Source: a virus. From it: 47,133 nucleotides of DNA. The position numbers and the translations under genes are program-made. Positions within the stretch are counted from its first letter, which is position 1. Every line of letters starts with the position of its first letter. The stretch spans positions 1-47,133 of IMG/VR virus record IMGVR_UViG_3300038954_000212; one strand, written 5' to 3'. Below, piece by piece: positions 4,163 to 47,133 of the stretch. The notes beneath the pieces are model-generated. The model was not told the origin of the DNA, did no database searches, and was given only the letters and a program-made list of their open reading frames with translations.

Positions 4163-4557
4163 TATGCAAAAAAATACTGTTATCTATATTGTTATTTTTA
4201 TTATTGTCGCATTCACTTTGGGGTATCGAGCCGGATGCCAGAGCGCAGGTTCTAGAGTTACTATTGCAGAACGAGATAGATATAGACAGATTGCAGCGGA
4301 AAATAATAGAATTAAAAACCAACTTGAAAACGCACGAGAAACAATTGGAAAACTCTCAAAAAATTATGCAGAAATTGAGGCAGAATATAACAATCTTAGA
4401 GAAACAATTGCAGACAGCATTGATGATACAGGAGAAATTGCAGAAACGATTAAAAAAATACGAGAACGAAACCAGGACGCAATTAATCTATTACATTAGT
4501 ATTAGCGTTGCCGCCGGGTTAGCTGCTGGGTTTGTCGCTGGGGTTTTGCTGGAATGA
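4159..4557 (+). CDS. Spanin-like protein (signal peptide, coiled coil, C-terminal TM)
   Basis: A 132-residue protein with an N-terminal hydrophobic signal-like segment (ILLSILLFLLLSHSLWG). A long coiled coil follows (about 28-108, repeated Leu/Ile heptads in RLQRKIIELKTNLK and ITILEKQLQTALMI), then a C-terminal membrane helix (SISVAAGLAAGFVAGVLL). Coiled coil plus C-terminal TM is the plan of unimolecular spanins such as phage T1 gp11, but no lipobox cysteine follows the signal. It overlaps almost completely, in another frame, the gene at 4164. It starts as ATGA on the previous stop. Disruption of the outer membrane at lysis is inferred. Confidence 0.6.
   Translation: MICKKILLSILLFLLLSHSLWGIEPDARAQVLELLLQNEIDIDRLQRKIIELKTNLKTHEKQLENSQKIMQKLRQNITILEKQLQTALMIQEKLQKRLKKYENETRTQLIYYISISVAAGLAAGFVAGVLLE
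4164..4499 (+). CDS. Rz-like inner-membrane spanin, embedded in the 4159 gene in another frame
   Basis: A 111-residue frame starting at ATG 4164, five bases after the start of the 4159 gene. It has an N-terminal membrane anchor (VIYIVIFIIVAFTLGY) and then a continuous helical coiled-coil domain (AERDRYRQIAAENNRI, ETIGKLSKNYAEIEAEY), the plan of i-spanins. Both overlapping frames stay open for over 330 bases and both encode an anchor plus coiled coil, which is hard to explain by chance. It recalls the nested Rz/Rz1 pairs. Either frame could be the sole functional one; two-protein coding is the better explanation. Confidence 0.5.
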   Translation: MQKNTVIYIVIFIIVAFTLGYRAGCQSAGSRVTIAERDRYRQIAAENNRIKNQLENARETIGKLSKNYAEIEAEYNNLRETIADSIDDTGEIAETIKKIRERNQDAINLLH

Positions 4558-4822
4558 TGTGATGTTCGATCGTTTCAAAACATTCTCTAATAGCTTGAAT
4601 TAACGATTCTGGTGCAGTCTCTTTAGAGTGCAATAGGCACCAGGAATTTACTGCATTAACACAAGCAGATTTTATAGATGTATTTTGTAGTGTTGTAATT
4701 TTACGCCCCAATTCATCTAACGACTTTTCAGTAAAATGCAATATAAAACCACTAAAATCTGCTCTATACCGCATGCCCTCCTTATATCTTAAATCACCGG
4801 GTTTAAGTTTTTCTATTTTCAT
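4502..4822 (-). CDS. Cassette 7 protein, unknown function
   Basis: A 106-residue protein, the last (promoter-distal) gene of the attC-like array. The ATG at 4822 has GGAGG upstream and lies 25 bases beyond the GTT box of site G. The sequence is mixed helical (EKSLDELGRKITTLQ, ESLIQAIRECFETIEHHI) with a basic Gln-rich tail. Its end overlaps the spanin-like gene tail-to-tail by 56 bases. No palindrome is seen after it, so the array ends here. Not recognised. Confidence 0.55.
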   Translation of the reverse strand: MKIEKLKPGDLRYKEGMRYRADFSGFILHFTEKSLDELGRKITTLQNTSIKSACVNAVNSWCLLHSKETAPESLIQAIRECFETIEHHIIPAKPQRQTQQLTRRQR

Positions 4823-4846
4823 TTATTCCTCCAAAGCTAAAATTTT

Positions 4847-4905
4847 GTACAACGTTCTGCGATTATACGCCGTTTTAATGGCGTATCAATCGCTGTTGTC
4901 TGATG
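4847..4905 (-). repeat. attC-like site G
   Basis: Imperfect palindrome read on the minus strand: ACAAC box, arm GCGATTGATACGCC, loop ATTAAAAC, arm GGCGTATAATCGC, then GAACGTTGTAC. The left arm carries one extra G, an extrahelical base as in attC stems. Its left end (CATCAGACAAC) matches the complement of the cassette's own start (GTTGTGTGAA) in most positions. Confidence 0.7.
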
Positions 4906-5051
4906 TAAGTTGGCGATTTGTAAATAATACCGTCACCACCTACACGCCCGCAACTTTCACACGGGTGTGACACATGAGACAAACACCCCATATGATCACA
5001 TGGTTGATATCTATCGAATAATATTTCTCTTGTATCTTCGTAAAACTGCAT
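4875..5051 (-). CDS. Cassette 6 protein, small Cys/His-rich
   Basis: A 58-residue protein starting at the ATG at 5051 with AGGAGG seven bases upstream; the longer upstream reading has no such site. It has a Cys/His cluster (QPCDHMGCLSHVSHPCESCG, about residues 17-36) that looks like a small zinc-binding fold. The last residues QQRLIRH are encoded by the left arm of attC-like site G, which also supplies the stop. Function unknown. Confidence 0.55.
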   Translation of the reverse strand: MQFYEDTREILFDRYQPCDHMGCLSHVSHPCESCGRVGGDGIIYKSPTYIRQQRLIRH

Positions 5052-5065
5052 ATAGCCTCCTATTT

Positions 5066-5102
5066 CACACAACGTTTTGCGATTATGCGAAGTCGTGCAA
5101 CG
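5066..5102 (-). repeat. attC-like site F (right half conserved)
   Basis: The right half TTCGCATAATCGC plus AACGTTGTGTG is conserved with site C, and GTT is followed by GTGAAATA as in other sites. The left partner is short (CGTTGC pairing with GCAAAACG with two extra A bases). It is a degenerate or differently built member of the family. Confidence 0.5.
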
Positions 5103-5301
5103 CCTCATCGATAACTTTCCGAAGCCTAAGCAATGCATCCTTACCACCGTTCATCGCAAGAACCTCCACCATAGCACGTTCTTCTGTTTCCATTACCCAT
5201 CGGTACAGATTAGCCGACAATTCAACGAGAGCTTGCTTATTAAACTCAAGCTCACCCGTGCCATCAATACCCCAGTTCACTTTCGATATTCGATTATCCA
5301 T
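5083..5301 (-). CDS. Cassette 5 protein, unknown function
   Basis: A 72-residue acidic, mainly helical protein (LVELSANLYRWVMETEERAM, ALLRLRKVIDEALHD). ATG at 5301 with AAGGAGG nine bases upstream. It begins about 50 bases after site E and its stop lies in site F. Not recognised. The good start site, lack of a promoter and palindromes on both sides fit a captured cassette. Confidence 0.55.
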   Translation of the reverse strand: MDNRISKVNWGIDGTGELEFNKQALVELSANLYRWVMETEERAMVEVLAMNGGKDALLRLRKVIDEALHDFA

Positions 5302-5349
5302 ACTTACCCTCCTTGGCAGCCAACTACAATATGGTCGGTTGACCTATTT

Positions 5350-5405
5350 CATCTAACAGCGACTATACGCCGTTTTAATGGCGTATCAATCGCTGTTGTG
5401 TGCTG
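5350..5405 (-). repeat. attC-like site E
   Basis: On the minus strand: ACAACAGCGATTGATACGCC, loop ATTAAAAC, GGCGTATAGTCGCTGTTAGATG. The right end GTTAGAT fits the integron R' consensus GTTRRRY exactly. The outer arms pair AACAGCGA with TCGCTGTT. The stop codon of the upstream cassette gene lies in the left arm. Confidence 0.75.
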
Positions 5406-5601
5406 TCTCAGCCAACTTTTTCAGTTTATCTAATATCTCACATCGTCCATTGTTTTTGTCGGGAATATACCACTCATGGTCAAAAGCCCGCCAAAAAGCA
5501 TTTGTAAAATTATCCAATATATATCTATCTATTTCAGATCTATGTTGCCCTGCTATCTCTCTAACTCTTATCCCTCCCGATGATTGGTCTACAAAAAACA
5601 T
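5386..5601 (-). CDS. Cassette 4 protein, unknown function
   Basis: A 71-residue protein, ATG at 5601 with AGGAGG seven bases upstream. It has helical stretches (SEIDRYILDNFTNAFWRAF, EILDKLKKLAETAHN). The final Asn-Ser-Asp and TGA come from the left arm of site E. Not recognised. Confidence 0.55.
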   Translation of the reverse strand: MFFVDQSSGGIRVREIAGQHRSEIDRYILDNFTNAFWRAFDHEWYIPDKNNGRCEILDKLKKLAETAHNSD

Positions 5602-5631
5602 ACATTCCTCCTGTATAATGGCTAAGGATTT

Positions 5632-5689
5632 CAGCTAACGTTTACGATTATACGCCGTTTTAATGGCGTATCAATCGTTGTTGTGTGAA
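5632..5689 (-). repeat. attC-like site D
   Basis: On the minus strand: TTCACACAAC, ACGATTGATACGCC, loop ATTAAAAC, GGCGTATAATCGT, AAACGTTAGCTG. The left end TTCACACAAC is the exact 10-base complement of GTTGTGTGAA, the first bases of the cassette it closes (site C side). This self-complementarity of cassette ends is the hallmark of integron cassettes. Confidence 0.8.
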
Positions 5690-5803
5690 TTGACGATGGG
5701 GCGAGGATTTGAACCTCGCATGTAAACGATCCACGACGCGTCGCCGTGTCGCATACGCCTGTGCACTTTCAGCATGTCTACCCATTCCATCACCCATCAT
5801 CAT
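5660..5803 (-). CDS. Possible 47-residue frame in the tRNA-like cassette
   Basis: An open frame from an ATG triplet run at 5803 reads through the tRNA-like sequence and ends QQRLIRH in site D, as cassette 6 does in site G. It is Arg-rich and has no good ribosome binding site. The shared end comes simply from the palindrome. I think the tRNA-like RNA is the likelier content of this cassette and list this frame only as a candidate. Confidence 0.2.
   Translation of the reverse strand: MMMGDGMGRHAESAQAYATRRRVVDRLHARFKSSPHRQFTQQRLIRH
5694..5799 (-). tRNA. tRNA-like gene carried in a cassette (anticodon not resolved)
   Basis: On the minus strand the 3' end is a textbook T arm, GCGAG-GTTCAAATC-CTCGC, followed by CCCATCG. 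That pairs over seven positions with TGATGGG at the 5' end (one G-T pair). The D arm, ATG-GAATGGGTAGA-CAT, closely resembles type II tRNAs such as tRNA-Leu. The element is about 106 bases, longer than a normal tRNA-Leu, and I could not fold a clean anticodon arm between the D arm and the variable region. It may be degenerate, contain an insertion, or be an unusual tRNA. No CCA is encoded. It fills most of the 174-base unit between sites C and D. Confidence 0.5.
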
Positions 5804-5861
5804 TTCACACAACATTTGCGATTATGCGAATTGCCTACCGCAATTAGGGCAATGGTTAAAG
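5804..5861 (-). repeat. attC-like site C
   Basis: The right half CGCATAATCGCAAATGTTGTGTG is shared with site F. The left partner is probably TTTAACCATTGC, pairing with GCAAATG with one extra base. The arms differ in sequence from sites B, D, E and G while the overall plan is kept. It overlaps the end of the cassette 2 gene. Confidence 0.5.
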
Positions 5862-6067
5862 TTTGGATTACGCTGTTTTTGCTCATCACATTCTATACAT
5901 TTTGCGCATTTTGCATAATCGCTGTTAGATAATGTCTTTTGGAGCTGTTCGCTATCGAGCTCCAACACTGTATTTTTTAATGTTTCCATAATTCCATCAG
6001 TGTTTACAATTCCGTAGTGTGTTACAGCCCAAACAACTTGATTTCTAAGGTCTTTATATTTATTCAT
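5822..6067 (-). CDS. Cassette 2 protein with C-terminal Cys cluster
   Basis: An 81-residue protein starting at ATG 6067 (GGAGG eight bases upstream), directly abutting the stop of the previous gene. The N-terminal half is helical. The C-terminal part has CAKCIEC and HCPNCG, a four-cysteine zinc-ribbon-like arrangement spaced by about 15 residues. The end of the gene runs into site C. Function unknown. Confidence 0.6.
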   Translation of the reverse strand: MNKYKDLRNQVVWAVTHYGIVNTDGIMETLKNTVLELDSEQLQKTLSNSDYAKCAKCIECDEQKQRNPNFNHCPNCGRQFA

Positions 6068-6304
6068 TTAATACCTCCAAAATATTTCATCTAACGTTCT
6101 GCGATTATACGCCGTTTTAATGGCGTACCAATCGCTGTTGTCAGATCGTCTTTTTGCGTCTCTTCTTAACTGATCTGTATTTAATAAATTGCAGACTCTA
6201 TAGTCTTTAGTATACCGACCGTCTTTTTTACAATTGCCCTCATCTCTGTAAACTTTATCTCTGTTAAAAAACCTGCAATCTTTACACTGTACTGGTTTTA
6301 ACAT
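6068..6304 (-). CDS. Cassette 1 zinc-finger-like protein reading through an attC-like site
   Basis: A 78-residue protein, ATG at 6304 with AGGAGA upstream. CKDCRFF, then EGNCKKDG and a later Cys (YRVCN) resemble small phage zinc-finger proteins of the CxxCxF type. Unusually, the last about 24 residues (from NSDWYAIK to the end) are encoded by the whole of attC-like site B, whose third reading phase has no stop. The TAA stop touches the next ATG (TAAATG). Confidence 0.6.
   Translation of the reverse strand: MLKPVQCKDCRFFNRDKVYRDEGNCKKDGRYTKDYRVCNLLNTDQLRRDAKRRSDNSDWYAIKTAYNRRTLDEIFWRY
6088..6145 (-). repeat. attC-like site B
   Basis: On the minus strand: TCTGACAAC, AGCGATTGGTACGCC, loop ATTAAAAC, GGCGTATAATCGC, GAACGTTAGATG. 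The left end TCTGACAAC is the exact complement of GTTGTCAGA, the start of the same cassette at site A (9 bases). The right end GTTAGAT fits GTTRRRY. Confidence 0.8.
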
Positions 6305-6327
6305 AAACTCTCCTTAGCAAAAATATG

Positions 6328-6386
6328 TCTGACAACGTTCCGAGAATAAAACGAAGTTTTAATTTTGTTTATTCTCTGTTGTACGA
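6328..6386 (-). repeat. attC-like site A with different, compensated arms
   Basis: On the minus strand: TCGTACAAC, AGAGAATAAAC, AT-rich loop, GTTTTATTCTC, GGAACGTTGTCAGA. The arms are unrelated in sequence to those of site B but pair equally well, so the structure is conserved and not the bases. The left end TCGTACAAC is the exact complement of GTTGTACGA at 6519-6527, the start of the cassette it closes. Confidence 0.8.
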
Positions 6387-6496
6387 TCGTTTATTTTTTC
6401 TGCCATAACGGTTATTACACCGTTCTTCCTTTTGTAAATAATTTCGCAAGAATAATCACCGTTTGGCGATGCTTTATCATATCCAATATAAAACAT
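6359..6496 (-). CDS. 45-residue protein of the first cassette
   Basis: ATG at 6496 preceded by AAGGAG; the protein runs FYIGYDKASPNGDYSCEII then YKRKNGVITVMAEKIND and stops in the loop of site A. It looks like a small beta-rich domain. The gene, its start site and the two complementary ends (6519-6527 and 6378-6386) make a compact cassette of about 141 bases. Function unknown. Confidence 0.5.
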   Translation of the reverse strand: MFYIGYDKASPNGDYSCEIIYKRKNGVITVMAEKINDRTTENKQN

Positions 6497-6518
6497 AAAA
6501 TCTCCTTAAAAATAAATG

Positions 6519-6527
6519 TCGTACAAC
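6519..6527 (-). other. Upstream GTT box starting the attC-like array
   Basis: GTTGTACGA on the minus strand, the 9-base complement of the left end of site A. It marks the start of the first cassette. A full palindrome is not clear upstream, though CGTAC/GTACG can pair across it, so this may be a degenerate site or the original entry point. Confidence 0.45.
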
Positions 6528-6567
6528 TCCTATTACCTGTACGCACTACATACAGATAATACCACCA

Positions 6568-6616
6568 TATTGCGTTTATGCGCAATAACACAACAATACT
6601 TGCTGGCTGTATTGTT
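6568..6616 (-). terminator. Hairpins downstream of SSB
   Basis: Two perfect inverted repeats lie in the 140-base gap after ssb: AACAATAC/GTATTGTT (6592-6599 with 6609-6616, 9-base loop) and TATTGCG/CGCAATA (6568-6574 with 6581-6587). Neither is followed by a long T run on the minus strand, so termination may be partial, letting some transcripts enter the cassette array. Confidence 0.4.
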
Positions 6617-6637: not shown

Positions 6638-7039
6638 TTAGAACGGTATGTCAAAATCGTCGTCTTGCGACACTTCCTTCGGCTCTGGTTGTTCGCTTGC
6701 TACAGAATAATCATTTTTCAAAATCGGCGAAGCAAAACCCTGGACGACTATTTTAATTTTGCTCCTGTTCGTTCCATCCTCTGCTTGCCAGCGGTCTTGC
6801 TTTAATCGTCCATGCAATGCAACCGGCGCACCCTTATACAGCTTTTTGCTCCAGAATGAAACGTTTTTCGGCCAGAACTCGCAATCAATAAAACACGGCA
6901 CATTTTCCCATTCTCCGTTCTCACCCTTCTTGCGGTTGTCATTGTTCGCAATAGAAAACGACATTACCGTTGCCCCGTTTGCTACATTTTTAATTTCAGG
7001 GTCTCTTGTTAGGTTACCGTCTATGGCAATTACATTCAT
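6638..7039 (-). CDS. ssb: Single-stranded DNA-binding protein
   Basis: A 133-residue OB-fold SSB. The N-terminus MNVIAIDGNLTRDPEIK and the core VMSFSIANN, FIDCEFWPK and LHGRLKQDRWQ follow bacterial SSBs. The acidic tail DDDFDIPF is the standard partner-binding tip for host and phage repair proteins. It binds single-stranded DNA during replication and recombination. Its ATG (AGAGGAGG upstream) overlaps the small coiled-coil gene before it by 26 bases, in the operon with the Mre11-Rad50 fusion. Confidence 0.95.
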   Translation of the reverse strand: MNVIAIDGNLTRDPEIKNVANGATVMSFSIANNDNRKKGENGEWENVPCFIDCEFWPKNVSFWSKKLYKGAPVALHGRLKQDRWQAEDGTNRSKIKIVVQGFASPILKNDYSVASEQPEPKEVSQDDDFDIPF

Positions 7040-7175
7040 GCTTTACCTCCTCTTTAAGCATTTTTAATTCGGCTTTAACCTCAAGCAGTTTAGTGGTCAA
7101 TTTCCGATTTTCATTTTGCAATCTTGTAACCTCCTCTTCTAAAAACTCCTTTTCTAAATCGCTTGATATGTGCAT
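7014..7175 (-). CDS. 53-residue coiled-coil protein between the Mre11-Rad50 fusion and SSB
   Basis: A small gene starting at ATG 7175, overlapping the stop of the nuclease gene as TAATG, with GAGGAGG just upstream. The sequence is almost entirely one acidic/basic coiled coil (EKEFLEEEVTRLQNENRKL) with a CNCH C-terminus. Its position suggests a small partner of the nuclease or SSB; that is inference. Confidence 0.6.
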   Translation of the reverse strand: MHISSDLEKEFLEEEVTRLQNENRKLTTKLLEVKAELKMLKEEVKHECNCHRR

Positions 7176-10100
7176 TAGACCTCCTCTAATAAATTGTTTA
7201 TATCAATGTGATTCTGAATGTACTCATGGCTTTGCGGGTTATGCGTCACCGTCAGAACTTTTTGCGTCCAGTAATTATTTTGCATCGAGTAATATGCTGC
7301 AATACGATCCGGAGCAATCGGCGCGTCGGCTTCGTCAATTACAACTGGTTCATAATTTCGGTGTTGCCTGTTGTTTCGTTGTGTCACAAGCGCTTTTACG
7401 TAAGCGTCACAGAAAAACGCCTTCTCGCCGGGGCTGTGTTGCAGCAGTGATTTGCTTTGTCCGGTCTCCTTATTGTGTACAACAATATTAAACCTGTCAA
7501 CGACTCCCTTTTTCCCCTGCTCTTGTGTCTGCGTCTCGAAGGAATACTTACCAGAATCAAGCTGTGCAATTATCTTGCTTGCCTCGGAGTCAATCACGCC
7601 AAGGACCAGGTCAAGTTCAAGCGCTGGAAGCTTCGAGCTTTGCAGGTTTACTGCAATGTAATTCCAGTCAATAAGGTCGGACTCAATTTTTTTGAGCCTC
7701 GCCTTCTCTGTTTTTATTTTTGCCTCAGTCTCTTTTGCTCTGTCCAGTGCTTTTGTTTTATCGTCAATCATTGTTTTGAATTTAGTACATTTAGACAATT
7801 CTGTCTGATAGTCATTCAGAATGACCTCACGTTTGTGTTTCAGCATTTTTAATTCAGACTCAAGCCCCGGTATTCGAGATATATCGATAGTTTCAAGCTC
7901 AGCTTTTATTTTATCAATGTCAGTTTGCAAATGATGTTTTTTACTTTTAAGCTCGGTTGTTTTTTTCTCAAGCTCACGGGCTTCGAGTATTTTATTTTTA
8001 ATTTTCACAGCTTCACTTTCAAGCTCATGAATATTAAGAACAGGTTTGCTTGGCGGTTCTTTGTCCGGTAGTTCCGGGGGCAATGGCTTATCTTTCAGAT
8101 TATCACGCTCAAGCACAAGCTTGTCTATTTCAGCTTGCGTGCTGGCTTGCTTGTTTTTAAGCTCAGTTATTTTTTGCTCACGTTCCGGGTGTACCCACCC
8201 GCAATTTTCACAACCCTTTGTCATTTCGGCTATTCTGTAGTTTGCGTCGTTCTCTTTTGTTACCAGCGATTTTATTTGCAGGCTCAAGCTTTCAATTTCA
8301 GATTTACACTTTTGCCGTTCAAGCATTCGTTCCTGCTGTCTAATTTTATGCCGTTCATATTCTGTCAGTTGTTTTTCATACTCGGCCTGTTGCTTTTTTT
8401 GCTCATCAAGCTCACTGTTTACTTTCTCAAGTTCAGCTTCCAGTTTATTCACGTCCTCACCTTCGGTGAAGTGGAGCTGTTTGTCTATATTCTCAATTTC
8501 AATTTTTTTTGAATACAGCGAACAATTTAAGCTGTCGTGCCTTGTTGCCTTCTCACGCTCCTTTGTGAGGCTTGATTCAAGATTGTCAATTGAAACACGC
8601 ACGGCCTTTCCGGAAGCCTCAAGTTCCGCTGTGCCTTTTTGCGCTTCGCGGAGGCTGTTGCTCAGGCTATCAATTTCCTGTTCAAGCGCGGCTGTGTCCA
8701 GTTGAAAATCTTGTACCCCGGTTAACCATGCGTGTATTTTTTCTTTGTCTGATTTTAATTCACTACACTTGTTCAGTGCATACGTTTTTTCTTTCTCTCT
8801 GTTAATACCGGCGATGTTCTGCACTAAGTCTCTAATTTCAGTCATGCTTGCAGACATCAACGCAGACTCTTGCTTCCAACCTTGCTGTGGCTGTACATAG
8901 AACGATGTCAAAACATAATCATTCAACGAACCGTAACGATGCTCACATTCCTTCAACATTTCATCAAACGTGCCCTTGTCGAGTATCGACTTGCCATCAA
9001 CTTCAAAATAACATTCAACCTTTGGGGTTTTTGTATGCGCCGCGCGAATTGTGATATAATGCCGGTGCTGTTGTCCGTTGTATTCCAGTAGTTTTTCAAT
9101 GTACGAATCAGGCGCGTTGAAAAAGTCCTTGATTGACGACGACCGACCGGAGCTAGTTACCTTCCCGATCACAACAGGGTACGGTGAACAGAAACTCAGC
9201 ACAGAAGATTTGCCCGCGCCGTTGCTCCCGTCGATTACGTTCAGTCCGGTTGTCAGTTTGTCAATATCTATTTTCATTTTTTTATTTTTGAATAACACAC
9301 AACCTGAGACCTCGACTGATTTTATTTTTACATAAATCGGAGTCAGTTTTGTATTTTTAAGCTCAGCCGGTATTTCCGCTATTTTTTTAAGCGCAGATTT
9401 TTTCACCTTCGGATCGTAGAGCTTGAACAGGTCTTCCAGTGTTTTTGTCTGTTCATATTCTGCTTCTGTTATTCGCGACGATTCCCGGCGTTCTGCTTTG
9501 TGTGTAATTCGAGACCACGGATGTACACGGCTTGGAAACTCTTTTGTATCGTCCTCAGTCTCAAGCCAGTATGCGATATTCGGGTCAAGGTTTTCGGGTA
9601 GCTTGTTTATTTTTTTTCTTACAGGCGTATAGTAATTCTCTCTTGTAATTGTGTTATTACTCAAGTTTACAATGTTCATTGCAGGCTGAAAATCAATGTT
9701 TCCCCACGGCGAGGAGTCCACCCCGGTATACCCCGCGTACCCTGCAAATATTTTGTCAGATTCCCATGGTTTATGAATATGCCCCAAGCTCCACCGTGTA
9801 ATATCAGCACAGCTCCTGAGTCTTTCAGTGTGTATTACAAGGTCAGACATTTGCATTATCTTGTCTGTTGCGTTCTCTGGAGCAGAGTCTGTCACGTTGC
9901 CGTGGAATAAACATACAGCCGGGACGTCGGGGTGCTTCATTCGTCGCCTTGATATGTAGTCAGTTACATACTTATAGAATTGCTTGACAGTTTCTGCGTT
10001 GGCTTCCTCTGCTGACAGTCCAAGTTTTTTTTGTACCAGTTTTTTGTTCAGTTCCGGGATCCCAAATAACATACATTCAGGATTTTCGTTTGTACTTGCG

Positions 10101-10447
10101 TCAAGTCTGATCACATCACCAGAGACAAGTCCGTATGTCGTGTTTGGCTTTAGTACCGTCAATCCAATATCCCCAAGATGTTTGAGACTTCCCGGCGGTT
10201 CGTGCGATGGCGTTCCATGAATTGCAACGACAGGACATATTCCGGTAAGTCGTTTTATGCAGCTCCGCAGGAAATTAAATCCAGACTTATCGCTTGCCAT
10301 AATTCCACGGTTGTATAAATCACCGGGAAGTGCAATAAATGCGACGTCATGTTTTTTTGCAGCATCGGCAATGTTAATAATAATTTTCTCAAAATGCTCC
10401 TGCCACGATGGGTCAAAATGCAGGTCGGGAGCTTCAATATATTTCAT
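7175..10447 (-). CDS. Single-chain Mre11-Rad50 (SbcD-SbcC) nuclease-ATPase fusion
   Basis: A 1090-residue protein uniting both halves of the SbcCD/Mre11-Rad50 DNA-end nuclease. The N-terminal metallophosphoesterase has DLH (8-10), GDLYN (42-46), GTPSH (78-82), FHGN near 181 and GHIH near 222. The ATPase has Walker A GSNGAGKSS near 407, a long coiled coil with the zinc hook CENC near 744, a signature SPGEKAFF near 1004 and Walker B VVIDEADAP near 1036. The canonical GNHD is replaced by GTPSH, and GDxxD by GDLYN, so metal binding may differ. Start at ATG 10447 (GGGGAGG upstream). It probably resects or clears hairpin ends for recombination and host DNA breakdown. T4 and T5 use two separate genes. 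Confidence 0.9.
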   Translation of the reverse strand: MKYIEAPDLHFDPSWQEHFEKIIINIADAAKKHDVAFIALPGDLYNRGIMASDKSGFNFLRSCIKRLTGICPVVAIHGTPSHEPPGSLKHLGDIGLTVLKPNTTYGLVSGDVIRLDASTNENPECMLFGIPELNKKLVQKKLGLSAEEANAETVKQFYKYVTDYISRRRMKHPDVPAVCLFHGNVTDSAPENATDKIMQMSDLVIHTERLRSCADITRWSLGHIHKPWESDKIFAGYAGYTGVDSSPWGNIDFQPAMNIVNLSNNTITRENYYTPVRKKINKLPENLDPNIAYWLETEDDTKEFPSRVHPWSRITHKAERRESSRITEAEYEQTKTLEDLFKLYDPKVKKSALKKIAEIPAELKNTKLTPIYVKIKSVEVSGCVLFKNKKMKIDIDKLTTGLNVIDGSNGAGKSSVLSFCSPYPVVIGKVTSSGRSSSIKDFFNAPDSYIEKLLEYNGQQHRHYITIRAAHTKTPKVECYFEVDGKSILDKGTFDEMLKECEHRYGSLNDYVLTSFYVQPQQGWKQESALMSASMTEIRDLVQNIAGINREKEKTYALNKCSELKSDKEKIHAWLTGVQDFQLDTAALEQEIDSLSNSLREAQKGTAELEASGKAVRVSIDNLESSLTKEREKATRHDSLNCSLYSKKIEIENIDKQLHFTEGEDVNKLEAELEKVNSELDEQKKQQAEYEKQLTEYERHKIRQQERMLERQKCKSEIESLSLQIKSLVTKENDANYRIAEMTKGCENCGWVHPEREQKITELKNKQASTQAEIDKLVLERDNLKDKPLPPELPDKEPPSKPVLNIHELESEAVKIKNKILEARELEKKTTELKSKKHHLQTDIDKIKAELETIDISRIPGLESELKMLKHKREVILNDYQTELSKCTKFKTMIDDKTKALDRAKETEAKIKTEKARLKKIESDLIDWNYIAVNLQSSKLPALELDLVLGVIDSEASKIIAQLDSGKYSFETQTQEQGKKGVVDRFNIVVHNKETGQSKSLLQHSPGEKAFFCDAYVKALVTQRNNRQHRNYEPVVIDEADAPIAPDRIAAYYSMQNNYWTQKVLTVTHNPQSHEYIQNHIDINNLLEEV

Positions 10448-11546
10448 GCGAAAACCTCCCCTGCTCTGGTATTGTCGCCTCAATGTCTTTCAGTATTTTT
10501 ATGGCTTTGTTTTTTGCGGTATCATTATCCTCAAGATTGTTACCGGAAGACAACCAATCAACAATTGCACCAGCAGCGTTTTCAAACTGCTCAGGCACCA
10601 TCGACTCTGACAAATAAGACCGCAGTATATGAGTGAGTTGCTCAGACAGGCTTACCGGCTCCGGCTCTGGATTTTTTTCTGGTTCTGGCCCCGGCTTCGG
10701 TTCTGGTTCCGGGGAAAATGTAACCTGTACTGGATCGTCGGCTTGTTCTGGTTCAGGCTCAGGCTCAAATAACAGGCTTTCAGGCTCATTACCTTTGCTT
10801 ATCGCTTGCAAGCGTGCCGCGCGTTCAAGATTCAGGTCTTCTTTAGACCTTCGGACCTTCGCGAACGTGAGTTTTCCAGACTGTAAATCCTGTGTTGCAT
10901 ATCCAGTCATAAGTCCTGCAAGCTCCCGGATTGTTTTTTCATACGCTTTAGTTTCGGCTTTAGCCTGTGCGAATTTAAGCTCACCTTGAAAGTGCAGCTT
11001 GCGTTTGAATTTGTTATCGTATTTATACTTGCCATATTTCGGCGGTATTGTATACCCCTCTGTCCAGCGCTCTTCCTTGAACCAGTCCTCAAGACATCGC
11101 TCCCAAGCGTTGTACGATACTGTGCAAGGCGAGCTATACCGTTTGGTTCCATCCTCTTCTATAACATACGATTGTTTTGTTACGGTGCGACCTACAATTT
11201 TATTTCGCATTGTCGGCAACTCGTCTTCGTCGCGGCACAGCATCGGGTTAATGTCCACTTCTTCAAGGATTGGCTTTACAATAGAATTATCACAGCCTTT
11301 AATGCCTTTTGCTTCTGCAATTTTGTACATCAAGGACGGTTGCGGCATCCACGACGGAGCCTTGTCGGTTCCGCAATTGTAGAAATCCTTTGACAGATTT
11401 TTCGGATCGAAATGCACTTCCGTCACAACTGCTTCAAACTGATCTGGCATTTCATTTATTAAGTCCCAGTTTACATATGTAGATTTGTCACCTGGACCCG
11501 CATTGCGGGCCCGTGCGATTACATCTTTATTTCCAATTATTTTCAT
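10434..11546 (-). CDS. Putative recombination/annealing protein with EP-rich linker
   Basis: A 370-residue protein. Residues 1-240 are a mixed domain with WDLINEMPDQFEAVV and an FQGELKFAQAKAETKAYEKTIREL helix that recurs in phage single-strand annealing-type proteins. Then comes a flexible linker of repeated Glu-Pro units (about 265-300) and a small helical C-terminal domain (about 305-370). It is translationally coupled to the Mre11-Rad50 fusion downstream and to a coiled-coil protein upstream, where many phages carry a RecT/Redbeta-type annealing protein. The annealing role is inferred from context, not from a firm motif. Confidence 0.4.
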   Translation of the reverse strand: MKIIGNKDVIARARNAGPGDKSTYVNWDLINEMPDQFEAVVTEVHFDPKNLSKDFYNCGTDKAPSWMPQPSLMYKIAEAKGIKGCDNSIVKPILEEVDINPMLCRDEDELPTMRNKIVGRTVTKQSYVIEEDGTKRYSSPCTVSYNAWERCLEDWFKEERWTEGYTIPPKYGKYKYDNKFKRKLHFQGELKFAQAKAETKAYEKTIRELAGLMTGYATQDLQSGKLTFAKVRRSKEDLNLERAARLQAISKGNEPESLLFEPEPEPEQADDPVQVTFSPEPEPKPGPEPEKNPEPEPVSLSEQLTHILRSYLSESMVPEQFENAAGAIVDWLSSGNNLEDNDTAKNKAIKILKDIEATIPEQGRFSHEIY

Positions 11547-45748: not shown

Positions 45749-47133
45749 TGTCAATTGAAAAAATAGAATACCCAACGGACCCGCCAGCGGCAAACGGTGA
45801 CTGGACAAAAATAATAAATCTGATACAAGCAATGTTTTTGGATATCGAGAAGCCTATAAGGGTAGACCTTGACAGCGACCTTGTGCTAAAGGGTAGCATA
45901 TTTCAAATCGGAGACAGTGTCTACAAGGCAACAGACGATACCAGCGTGCCAGGTACATCGTCGAATTACATAAAAATCACACCGTCAGGATCAAGCGCAA
46001 CGGCGTCGTATGTATCAAGCCTGTCTGGTGTGTCATGGAACGATACATACAACGGGTACTATGATGCATCCGGAAACCTGTATGTATTTGACGAACAACA
46101 AGCTCTAAACGATGGAGTAATATCAGACGTCTACGGCAAATACGTCGGAAAGAACGCCTCTGGGGTAACGTATATCAAGACGCTGAATGCTACTACCGGG
46201 AACATAACTACCGGAAACATAACTACCGGAAACATAACTACTGGCAACATAACTACCGGGAACATAACTACTGGTAACATAACTAATATAAAAATAGGAA
46301 CCAGTCCTGTGTTTTCAAGGATTATTTATTCAAAAGATTTCAATGGACAGACCGGGTCTGGTTTATCTGTTTCAGGGGTAGGCTCTACTGCCCTGGCAGC
46401 GTTGGATTCTAGTAATGTTGCATTTATAGACGGTAGTAACGAAGAGCTGCGAACATATAGCTGGAATGGTAGCAGCTGGTCACAGACCGGGTCTGGTTTA
46501 TCTGTTTCAGGGGTAGGCTCTACTGCCCTGGCAGCGTTGGATTCTAGTAATGTTGCATTTATAGACGGTAGTAACGAAGAGCTGCGAACATACAGCTGGA
46601 ATGGTAGCAGCTGGTCACAATCTGGCTCTGGCTTGTCTGTTCCAGGTATAACGGTTGTCGCCCTGGCAGCGTTGGATTCTAGTAATGTTGCATTTATAGA
46701 CGGTAGTAACGAAGAGCTGCGAACATACAGCTGGAATGGTAGCAGCTGGTCACAATCTGGCTCTGGCTTGTCTGTTCCAGGTATAACCAATCCGGTCTTG
46801 GCAGCGTTGGATTCTAGTAATGTTGCGTTTATAGATGGGACAAACGTCGAACTACGGACATACAGCTGGAATGGTAGCAGCTGGTCACAATCTGGCTCTG
46901 GTTTGTCTGTTCCAGGTGGAAATACCCCCGCATTAGCAGCCTTGGATTCTAGTAATGTTGCGTTTATAGATAATACAAACGACGAACTACGGACATACAG
47001 CTGGAATGGTAGCAGCTGGTCACAATCTGGCTCTGGTTTGTCTGTTCCAGGTGGAAATACCCCCGCATTAGCAGCCTTGGATTCTAGTAATGTTGCGTTT
47101 ATAGATAATACAAACGACGAACTACGGACATAC
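45748..47133 (+). CDS. Tail fibre with TTGNI and 45-residue repeats (continues at 2..151)
   Basis: An open frame of 462 codons running off the right end. Residues 1-145 are a non-repeating N-terminal part (about 30-75 SDLVLKGSIFQIGDSVYKA, carbohydrate-binding-like turns). Six (TTGNI) repeats follow (46192-46281), then six tandem 45-residue units with core LAALDSSNVAFIDGSNEEL and RTYSWNGSSWSQSGSGLSV. Each looks like a propeller blade or beta-solenoid rung. Units 1-4 differ in a few linker residues (VGSTA, ITVVA, ITNPV, GGNTP); the last two are the same. ATG 45748 overlaps the previous stop as TAATG. Receptor recognition is inferred. Copy number may be underestimated. Confidence 0.8.
   Translation, partial: MSIEKIEYPTDPPAANGDWTKIINLIQAMFLDIEKPIRVDLDSDLVLKGSIFQIGDSVYKATDDTSVPGTSSNYIKITPSGSSATASYVSSLSGVSWNDTYNGYYDASGNLYVFDEQQALNDGVISDVYGKYVGKNASGVTYIKTLNATTGNITTGNITTGNITTGNITTGNITTGNITNIKIGTSPVFSRIIYSKDFNGQTGSGLSVSGVGSTALAALDSSNVAFIDGSNEELRTYSWNGSSWSQTGSGLSVSGVGSTALAALDSSNVAFIDGSNEELRTYSWNGSSWSQSGSGLSVPGITVVALAALDSSNVAFIDGSNEELRTYSWNGSSWSQSGSGLSVPGITNPVLAALDSSNVAFIDGTNVELRTYSWNGSSWSQSGSGLSVPGGNTPALAALDSSNVAFIDNTNDELRTYSWNGSSWSQSGSGLSVPGGNTPALAALDSSNVAFIDNTNDELRTY
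46192..46281 (+). repeat. Six 15-bp tandem repeats encoding TTGNI
   Basis: Six copies of a 15-base unit (ACTACCGGGAACATA and variants at two wobble positions) encode a Thr-Thr-Gly-Asn-Ile run. Because 15 is a multiple of three, gain or loss changes fibre length without breaking the frame. Third-position variation shows the units are not all very recent copies. Confidence 0.9.
46348..47133 (+). repeat. 135-bp tandem repeats of the fibre gene
   Basis: Units recur exactly every 135 bases (TGGTAGCAGC at 46467, 46602, 46737, 46872 and 47007). The core of each is nearly identical at the DNA level, indicating recent amplification or gene conversion. The last two units are identical over at least 127 bases, which ended the assembly here. 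Confidence 0.95.
47007..47133. repeat. Right copy of 127-bp terminal direct repeat
   Basis: Identical to bases 1-127; see the left copy. Remove one copy to obtain the circular genome of 47,006 bases. Confidence 0.9.

What the first reader, a model, noticed from the sequence alone, without database searches (positions are those of the whole stretch)
4847..6527. Integron-like cassette array (CALIN-like) carried by a phage
Seven imperfect palindromes (sites A-G) separate seven promoterless leftward units of about 140-285 bases, each with its own ribosome binding site. The palindromes share plan and not strict sequence: ACAAC box, arm, ATTAAAAC-type loop, complementary arm with one extra base, then AACGTT. 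Site A has completely different but compensated arms. Right ends fit or approach the integron R' box GTTRRRY (GTTAGAT in B and E). Genes end within or just before the palindrome and the next starts shortly after GTT. I know of no described phage with such a cluster; no integrase is visible, so a host IntI would be needed.
Basis: partly seen in the sequence, partly recalled or inferred. Interest (0 to 1): 0.95.

Follow-up and report, generated by a model that had tools for sequence, protein, structure and literature searches.

The report
Phage-borne spirochaete integron cassette array
This virus of a spirochaete-like host carries a string of small exchangeable gene cassettes of the kind bacteria collect in integrons, and the matching bacterial capture platforms appear to use a recombinase lacking the protein part thought essential for integrons, which makes the origin of integrons testable.

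Summary
On the minus strand, 4841-6527 is an array of cassettes bounded by attC-like sites: five compact palindromes (A, B, D, E, G), one long site (C) and one half-site (F). A covariance model trained only on other virus contigs finds four window sites at E 4e-9 to 8e-5. About a dozen other IMG/VR contigs carry the same kind of site, with different but complementary arms. Each unit's start matches the reverse complement of its own end, not the neighbouring half of its site (27 units, permutation p<5e-5; window alone p=0.011). That is the footprint of cassettes moved as circles with a G|TT crossover.

Phage CALINs are already described (Qi 2023), so the 'first of its kind' claim fails. The likely partner enzyme is the surprise. 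In spirochaete genomes, matching sites and the same GTTRTRYG core follow a tyrosine recombinase that lacks the 42-residue region holding the I2 helix of canonical IntI. That core lies downstream of 12/20 such recombinases, against 2/19 canonical IntI and a 2.5% background. The model finds nothing around 20 canonical IntI genes. The phage encodes no tyrosine recombinase. Recombination itself is untested.

The parts
6515..6615 (-). Array entry. G|TT boundary at 6527/6526 (minus strand ...AATAGGAG|TTGTACGACATTT) preceded by a leader with TTGCGCATAAACGCAAT and TGCGTACA repeats; possible attI-like docking site
   Evidence: Sequence; start matches the rc of its own unit end, 6 of 7 positions; similarity to attI leaders of insertion-less recombinases only suggestive, p=0.057
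6359..6496 (-). Cassette 1 gene, 45 aa, RBS AAGGAG
   Evidence: no family match above cut-off
6324..6387 (-). Site A, attC-like, arms unlike the other sites but complementary; R' GTTGTCAG
   Evidence: R1 1.8e-8, held out; fold
6068..6304 (-). Cassette 2 gene, 78 aa, reads through site B
6083..6146 (-). Site B, R' GTTAGAT; contains TTGGTA-16-TATAAT
   Evidence: R1 7.9e-5
5822..6067 (-). Cassette 3 gene, 81 aa, zinc-ribbon-like cysteine-rich protein
   Evidence: weak phrog_10714 match 1.9e-4
5807..5930 (-). Site C, long attC-like site, R'' ATCTAAC, arms AGCGATTATGC/GCATAATCGC, R' GTTGTGTG
   Evidence: R1 weak (0.6)
5690..5797 (-). Cassette 4, ORF-less, tRNA-like relic
   Evidence: standard ARAGORN 0 hits, no Rfam tRNA hit
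5627..5689 (-). Site D, R' GTTAGCTG; contains TTGATA-16-TATAAT
   Evidence: R1 8.5e-7
5386..5601 (-). Cassette 5 gene, 71 aa
5345..5404 (-). Site E, R' GTTAGAT; contains TTGATA-16-TATAGT
   Evidence: R1 0.047
5083..5301 (-). Cassette 6 gene, 72 aa
5068..5091 (-). Site F, right half-site only (TTCGCATAATCGCAAAACGTTGTGTG)
4875..5051 (-). Cassette 7 gene, 58 aa, C-terminus encoded by site G
4841..4904 (-). Site G, last complete attC-like site, R' GTTGTAC; contains TTGATA-16-TATAAT
   Evidence: R1 3.7e-9, held out
4502..4822 (-). Gene after the last site, 106 aa, no site of its own
6638..7039 (-). Phage SSB gene directly upstream of the array
   Evidence: Pfam SSB 3.5e-26

Best explanation
The region is an array of mobile gene cassettes with attC-type recombination sites, inserted among the early genes of a tailed phage and lacking its own recombinase (CALIN-like). 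Each cassette runs from TT(R) to the G of its own site. It was added or moved by a tyrosine recombinase acting on the folded bottom strand (the window's + strand) with crossover at G|TT. The site type belongs to spirochaete integron-like platforms. Their recombinase is related to IntI but lacks the roughly 42-residue IntI-specific region that holds the I2 helix, and their attI core is GTTRTRYG. When the phage replicates in such a host, single-stranded DNA lets the sites fold, and the host enzyme swaps cassettes between phage and host or phage and phage. The phage reads them as small early genes; in related phages these include anti-restriction genes (Lar, DNA methyltransferases). Shown by sequence: site anatomy, covariation, same type in other phages, own-end complementarity, matching platforms in bacteria, the missing insertion. 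Inferred: the spirochaete host, which enzyme acts, current mobility, and cassette benefit.
For: Same-plan arrays on other IMG/VR contigs. Model R1, trained on 23 sites from other virus contigs, hits held-out window sites at 3.7e-9 to 7.9e-5. Covariation: 64 cells changed on both sides against 23.5 expected (inflated because training sites were chosen for complementary arms). Own-end test: 27 units in 7 arrays (window and six other contigs), own start 4.96/7, same-site tail 3.81/7, shuffled 3.96 sd 0.18, p<5e-5, Wilcoxon p=0.0014; it survives leaving out each of the three largest arrays, and the window alone gives p=0.011. Bacterial counterparts: R1 hits G302 C24 and C42, G163 C22, G083, G344 and G036; L108:242-295 has the window's own loop (GCC-ATTAAAAC-GGCGTAT) and a HigA antitoxin cassette. 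Recombinase class: 100 residues between GKGxKDR and HxLRH in the 20 canonical IntI measured, 58-59 in the platform family, 63-66 in Xer. Attachment core GTTRTRYG within 300 nt after the recombinase: 12/20 insertion-less, 2/19 canonical (Fisher p=0.0015), background 2.5% (binomial 6e-15). L142, L163, L179 and L182 show recombinase, leader, G|TT, cassette, then a site whose R'' is an 8-10 nt exact rc of its own cassette start. R1 finds nothing in 74 kb around 20 canonical IntI genes.
Against: No recombination was tested, and no related phage with a changed array was found, so present-day mobility is unshown. R1 itself finds no site in 101 kb around 30 insertion-less recombinases; the bacterial first-cassette sites there were found by core motif and own-end match, and often have longer loops and bulges. 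Three window R' boxes (B, D, E) are GTTAG types like canonical sites, and four window sites keep one protruding base, so use by canonical IntI is not excluded. The window's own leader resembles the attI leaders only weakly (p=0.057) and L009's not at all. Most spirochaete genomes scanned carry few or no such sites. The host is inferred.
Confidence: 0.78

Rival explanations
1. The sites are ordinary attC sites served by a canonical host IntI (with I2); the insertion-less recombinases are coincidental neighbours.
For: 60 of 393 Spirochaetota genomes carry canonical IntI at E<=1e-50; GTTAGAT/GTTAGCT ends in window sites B, D, E; oral Treponema cassettes tolerate GTTRR(Y)R(Y)Y(R) cores (PMC4909258); other phage attC sites recombine with IntI1 (PMC9892861).
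Against: R1 finds no site around 20 canonical IntI genes. In G302 the canonical IntI on C2 sits beside classical sites that R1 does not hit, while C24/C42 carry the phage-type sites beside an insertion-less enzyme or its remnant. The GTTRTRYG core marks insertion-less platforms. Canonical G174 sites have two extrahelical bases in 7/7; most phage sites have none in the first 9 pairs.
Confidence: 0.2
2. The array is a fossil: cassettes captured once, now vertically inherited and no longer mobile.
For: Half-site F, tRNA-like relic, orphan tail unit; cassette 5 and the unit ending at site G do not match their own starts well; no recombinase in the phage.
Against: Other window units keep 5-7 of 7 own-end matches, which would decay without use; near-identical sites occur with different genes in different phages (L009:5130-5209, L080:3921-4000).
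Confidence: 0.25
3. The palindromes are RNA elements (terminators or processing sites) separating small genes of an operon.
For: Hairpins between co-directional genes; termite-gut spirochaetes have intergenic hairpins with the same ATTAAAAC loop.
Against: No attC-like site is a terminator-like hit, for want of a U-run. ORFs read through the sites. The bottom strand folds better than the transcript strand in all six. An RNA role does not explain own-end matching across a whole unit or G|TT platforms in bacteria.
Confidence: 0.03

Closest known systems
Phage-borne CALINs (Qi et al. 2023, PMC9892861)
   Same: attC clusters without integrase in phage genomes; codirectional cassettes; DNA methyltransferase cassettes
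   Different: Here a seven-unit array (more than ten sites in contig G406), on uncultivated virus contigs, with spirochaete-type sites whose matching platforms carry an insertion-less recombinase
Treponema chromosomal integrons (PMC3607928, PMC4909258)
   Same: Short 53-70 nt and long 120+ nt sites, R''/R' boxes, one protruding G in the L box, cassettes downstream of the recombinase gene
   Different: Those use canonical IntI. Sites beside canonical IntI in the G174 genome have GTTAG cores and two extrahelical bases; here mostly GTTGTRYG and 0-1 extrahelical base
Integron integrase IntI and its I2 helix (Messier and Roy 2001, cited in PMC9668308; eLife 2020 PMC7790495)
   Same: Nearest relatives of the platform recombinases in the tree; G|TT crossover logic
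   Different: Platform recombinases lack the 42-residue region and fall outside the canonical clade

Membership tests
Integron gene cassette / attC | Imperfect palindrome R''-L''-loop-L'-R' with conserved AAC and GTT | tested here: met
   site F fails (half-site)
Integron gene cassette / attC | R'' RYYYAAC and R' GTTRRRY consensus | tested here: inconclusive
   Met by GTTAGAT in B and E and ATCTAAC in C; most sites are RYACAAC/GTTGTRY
Integron gene cassette / attC | Extrahelical bases on the L'' side | tested here: inconclusive
   One protruding base in window sites B, D, E, G; absent from most other phage sites; two in canonical G174 sites
Integron gene cassette / attC | Cassette bounded by G|TT, its ends derived from one circular attC | tested here: met
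Integron gene cassette / attC | Match to published attC covariance models (IntegronFinder attC_4, HattCI) | not testable with these tools
   Models not available; own model used instead
Integron gene cassette / attC | Recombination by IntI | not testable with these tools
   Needs an in vivo assay
CALIN | At least two attC sites and no integron integrase nearby | tested here: met
Canonical integron | IntI with IntI-specific insertion, in cis | tested here: not met
   No tyrosine recombinase in the window; matching bacterial platforms have the insertion-less class
Rho-independent terminators | Hairpin followed by a U-run | tested here: not met

The most novel reading that the evidence does not exclude
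Spirochaetes hold a second integron lineage whose integrase never had, or has lost, the I2 insertion, yet captures cassettes at G|TT using attC-like folded sites with few or no extrahelical bases. Phages are carriers and exchange points of its cassettes. The enzymes branch just outside canonical IntI, so they may represent the pre-I2 state thought to be unavailable for study.
Probability: 0.55. Interest if true: 0.92.

Novelty: new variant of a known kind. Interest (0 to 1): 0.78.

Why it matters
The I2 insertion is described as the step that turned a double-strand recombinase into an integron integrase and as found in no other protein, with no ancestral sequence available (PMC7790495). A natural cassette platform with an insertion-less relative of IntI would make that step directly testable and would probably be missed by tools that require the IntI-specific domain (my inference). 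It would also mean that phages take part in cassette trade, using it as a shuffled store of small early and anti-restriction genes.

Tried and rejected
Close relatives of the phage: terminase, primase and a 33-nt site core gave none in IMG/VR; the array DNA has only short, insignificant hits in phage records; the major-capsid candidate has no match. The ATTAAAAC-loop 18-mer hits in spirochaete genomes looked like host attC sites at first but are plain intergenic hairpins. The ~400-aa recombinases of termite Treponema were first dismissed as Xer-like and taken up again after the insertion-length comparison. G302's canonical integron on C2 was considered as the source and set aside because its sites differ. 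Simple terminators, RNA families and REP-like hairpins were rejected. An attI in the phage is not claimed (p=0.057). I expected R1 to hit sites near every insertion-less recombinase; it did not.

Full report
What is there. The window is a 47,133-base virus record with tailed-phage genes: terminase, portal, ClpP-like protease, tape measure, amidase, helicase, SbcC-like nuclease, primase, SSB. On the minus strand, downstream of SSB, a series of small genes is separated by palindromes. Sites B, D, E and G share one core, A has unrelated complementary arms, C is long, and F is only a right half. The integron-integrase model, sensitive enough to ring on Xer in all 14 control genomes, finds no tyrosine recombinase in the window.

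More than chance. A strict finder gives four hits in the whole window, all in the array; shuffled windows average 0.47 with lower scores. The bottom strand (window + strand) folds better than the coding strand in all six complete sites; attC recombination is selective for the bottom strand (PMC8946536).

Other phages. The 18-mer core led to one other virus contig, L009, with about six sites of the same plan and different arms. Degenerate patterns then gave more contigs. Clear arrays or sites are on L009/G402, G403, G404, G405, G406, G408, G409, L115, L118, L119 and L120; L040 is not one. G406 has more than ten sites. Their backbones differ: SSB is shared by the window and G406 at 36% identity, and a methyltransferase by G403 and G408 at 53%. 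Model R1, from 23 spliced sites of these contigs, finds the held-out window sites. Helix 2 shows 96% paired cells with changes on both sides at 9 of 10 pairs, but training sites were picked for complementary arms, so the held-out hits are the fairer evidence.

The mobility footprint. If units are integron cassettes, the 3' part of R' at a site belongs to the next cassette, and a cassette's R'' should match its own start. Over 27 units this holds: 4.96 of 7 positions for own start, 3.81 for the same site, 3.96 for shuffled starts (p<5e-5; Wilcoxon p=0.0014). It holds without the window, without G406 and without L009, and for the window alone (p=0.011). The match comes in two blocks, +3 to +8 and +11 to +15 after GTT, split by a conserved two-base mismatch. 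A terminator or RNA-processing role does not predict this.

Bacterial counterparts. A pattern scan of 393 Spirochaetota genomes and R1 searches found isolated sites or short arrays in several genomes. In G302, contig C24 (L108) has cassettes including a HigA antitoxin. One L108 site reads ATCTAAC-AGCGTGTATATGCC-ATTAAAAC-GGCGTATACACGC-GGAAC-GTTAAAT, with the window's loop. Just upstream lies a tyrosine recombinase fragment and a leader that is 82% identical on contig C42 up to G|TT and then diverges. G302 also has a canonical IntI on C2 (412.7 bits) beside classical sites that R1 does not hit.

The enzyme. The recombinases beside phage-type sites lack the IntI-specific region. Between GKGxKDR and HxLRH there are 100 residues in the canonical IntI measured (20), 58-59 in this family and 63-66 in Xer. 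The family occurs in 52 of 393 Spirochaetota genomes at E<=1e-65; canonical IntI is in 60. In a maximum-likelihood tree canonical IntI is one clade (100/100). IntI plus insertion-less enzymes separate from Xer (97/97), and the insertion-less lineages lie outside canonical IntI (several long branches, root arbitrary). Downstream of 12 of 20 insertion-less enzymes is a leader of repeated palindromic motifs ending in G|TT[AG]TRYG; the motif occurs after 2 of 19 canonical IntI and in 2.5% of background windows. Most leaders resemble one another beyond chance. Four platforms show the first cassette closed by a site whose R'' is the exact rc of its own start over 8-10 nt: L142, L163, L179, L182. L163's next core, GTTAGCTGAAAT, is the tail of window site D. 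R1 finds nothing around 20 canonical IntI genes, though it also misses the longer bacterial sites near insertion-less enzymes.

Extrahelical bases. Sites after the canonical IntI of G174 have two extrahelical bases in 7 of 7. Phage sites found by a pattern blind to bulges mostly have none in the first nine pairs, and four window sites have one. I2 docks those bases in canonical IntI (PMC7790495), so fewer of them fits an enzyme without I2. This is inference.

How it probably works. Host recombinase, ssDNA made during phage replication, bottom-strand folding, G|TT exchange, and expression from the phage operon, perhaps helped by the promoter-like sequence inside four sites. Cassettes in related phages include Lar, N6_N4 and MT-A70 methyltransferases, which suggests counter-restriction. 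Window cassettes have no assignable function.

Known or new. Phage CALINs are known (PMC9892861). Treponema integrons are known (PMC3607928, PMC4909258). I found no report of an insertion-less integron platform in the open library, but most subscription papers are not held. Filed as a new variant of a known kind.

Limits. Host unproven; enzyme assignment by adjacency and shared core; no phage pair differing by cassettes; IMG/VR contigs are mostly fragments.

Noticed in passing
   Followed up: partly
window sites B, D, E, G (6131-6104, 5674-5647, 5389-5362, 4889-4862, minus strand): TTG[AG]TA-16-TATA[AG]T promoter-like sequence built from the two arms of the site; the protruding G completes the -35 box and the sequence points into the next cassette.
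   Followed up: partly
L013, L017, L019, L029, L033, L035: Termite-gut Spirochaetia genomes carry tandem intergenic hairpins with the loop ATTAAAAC, the same loop as in the phage sites but without attC boxes; possible REP-like elements.
   Followed up: partly
L047:1144-1206: An attC-like hairpin abuts the stop codon of a 432-aa insertion-less recombinase in genome G007, pointing the other way.
   Followed up: partly
G403 u2/u3, G406 u5, G404 u1, window 4875-5051: Cassette ORFs read through their attC, so the recombination site encodes similar C-terminal tails (e.g. SYIRKRC, RQQRLIRH).
   Followed up: no
27 units in 7 arrays: Own-end complementarity continues in a second block (+11 to +15 after GTT) past a conserved two-base mismatch, suggesting an outer stem in the circular cassette.
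   Followed up: partly
window 46326-47133: Tandem coding repeats in the last open frame, possibly a tail fibre or receptor-binding protein.
   Followed up: no
window 6638-10483 (-): SSB and an SbcC-like nuclease, both of which act on folded single strands, lie directly upstream of the array.
   Followed up: no
L086:8282-10797: In genome G163 a cassette-type site follows a DNA methyltransferase gene and a gene that looks like its restriction endonuclease partner.
   Followed up: no
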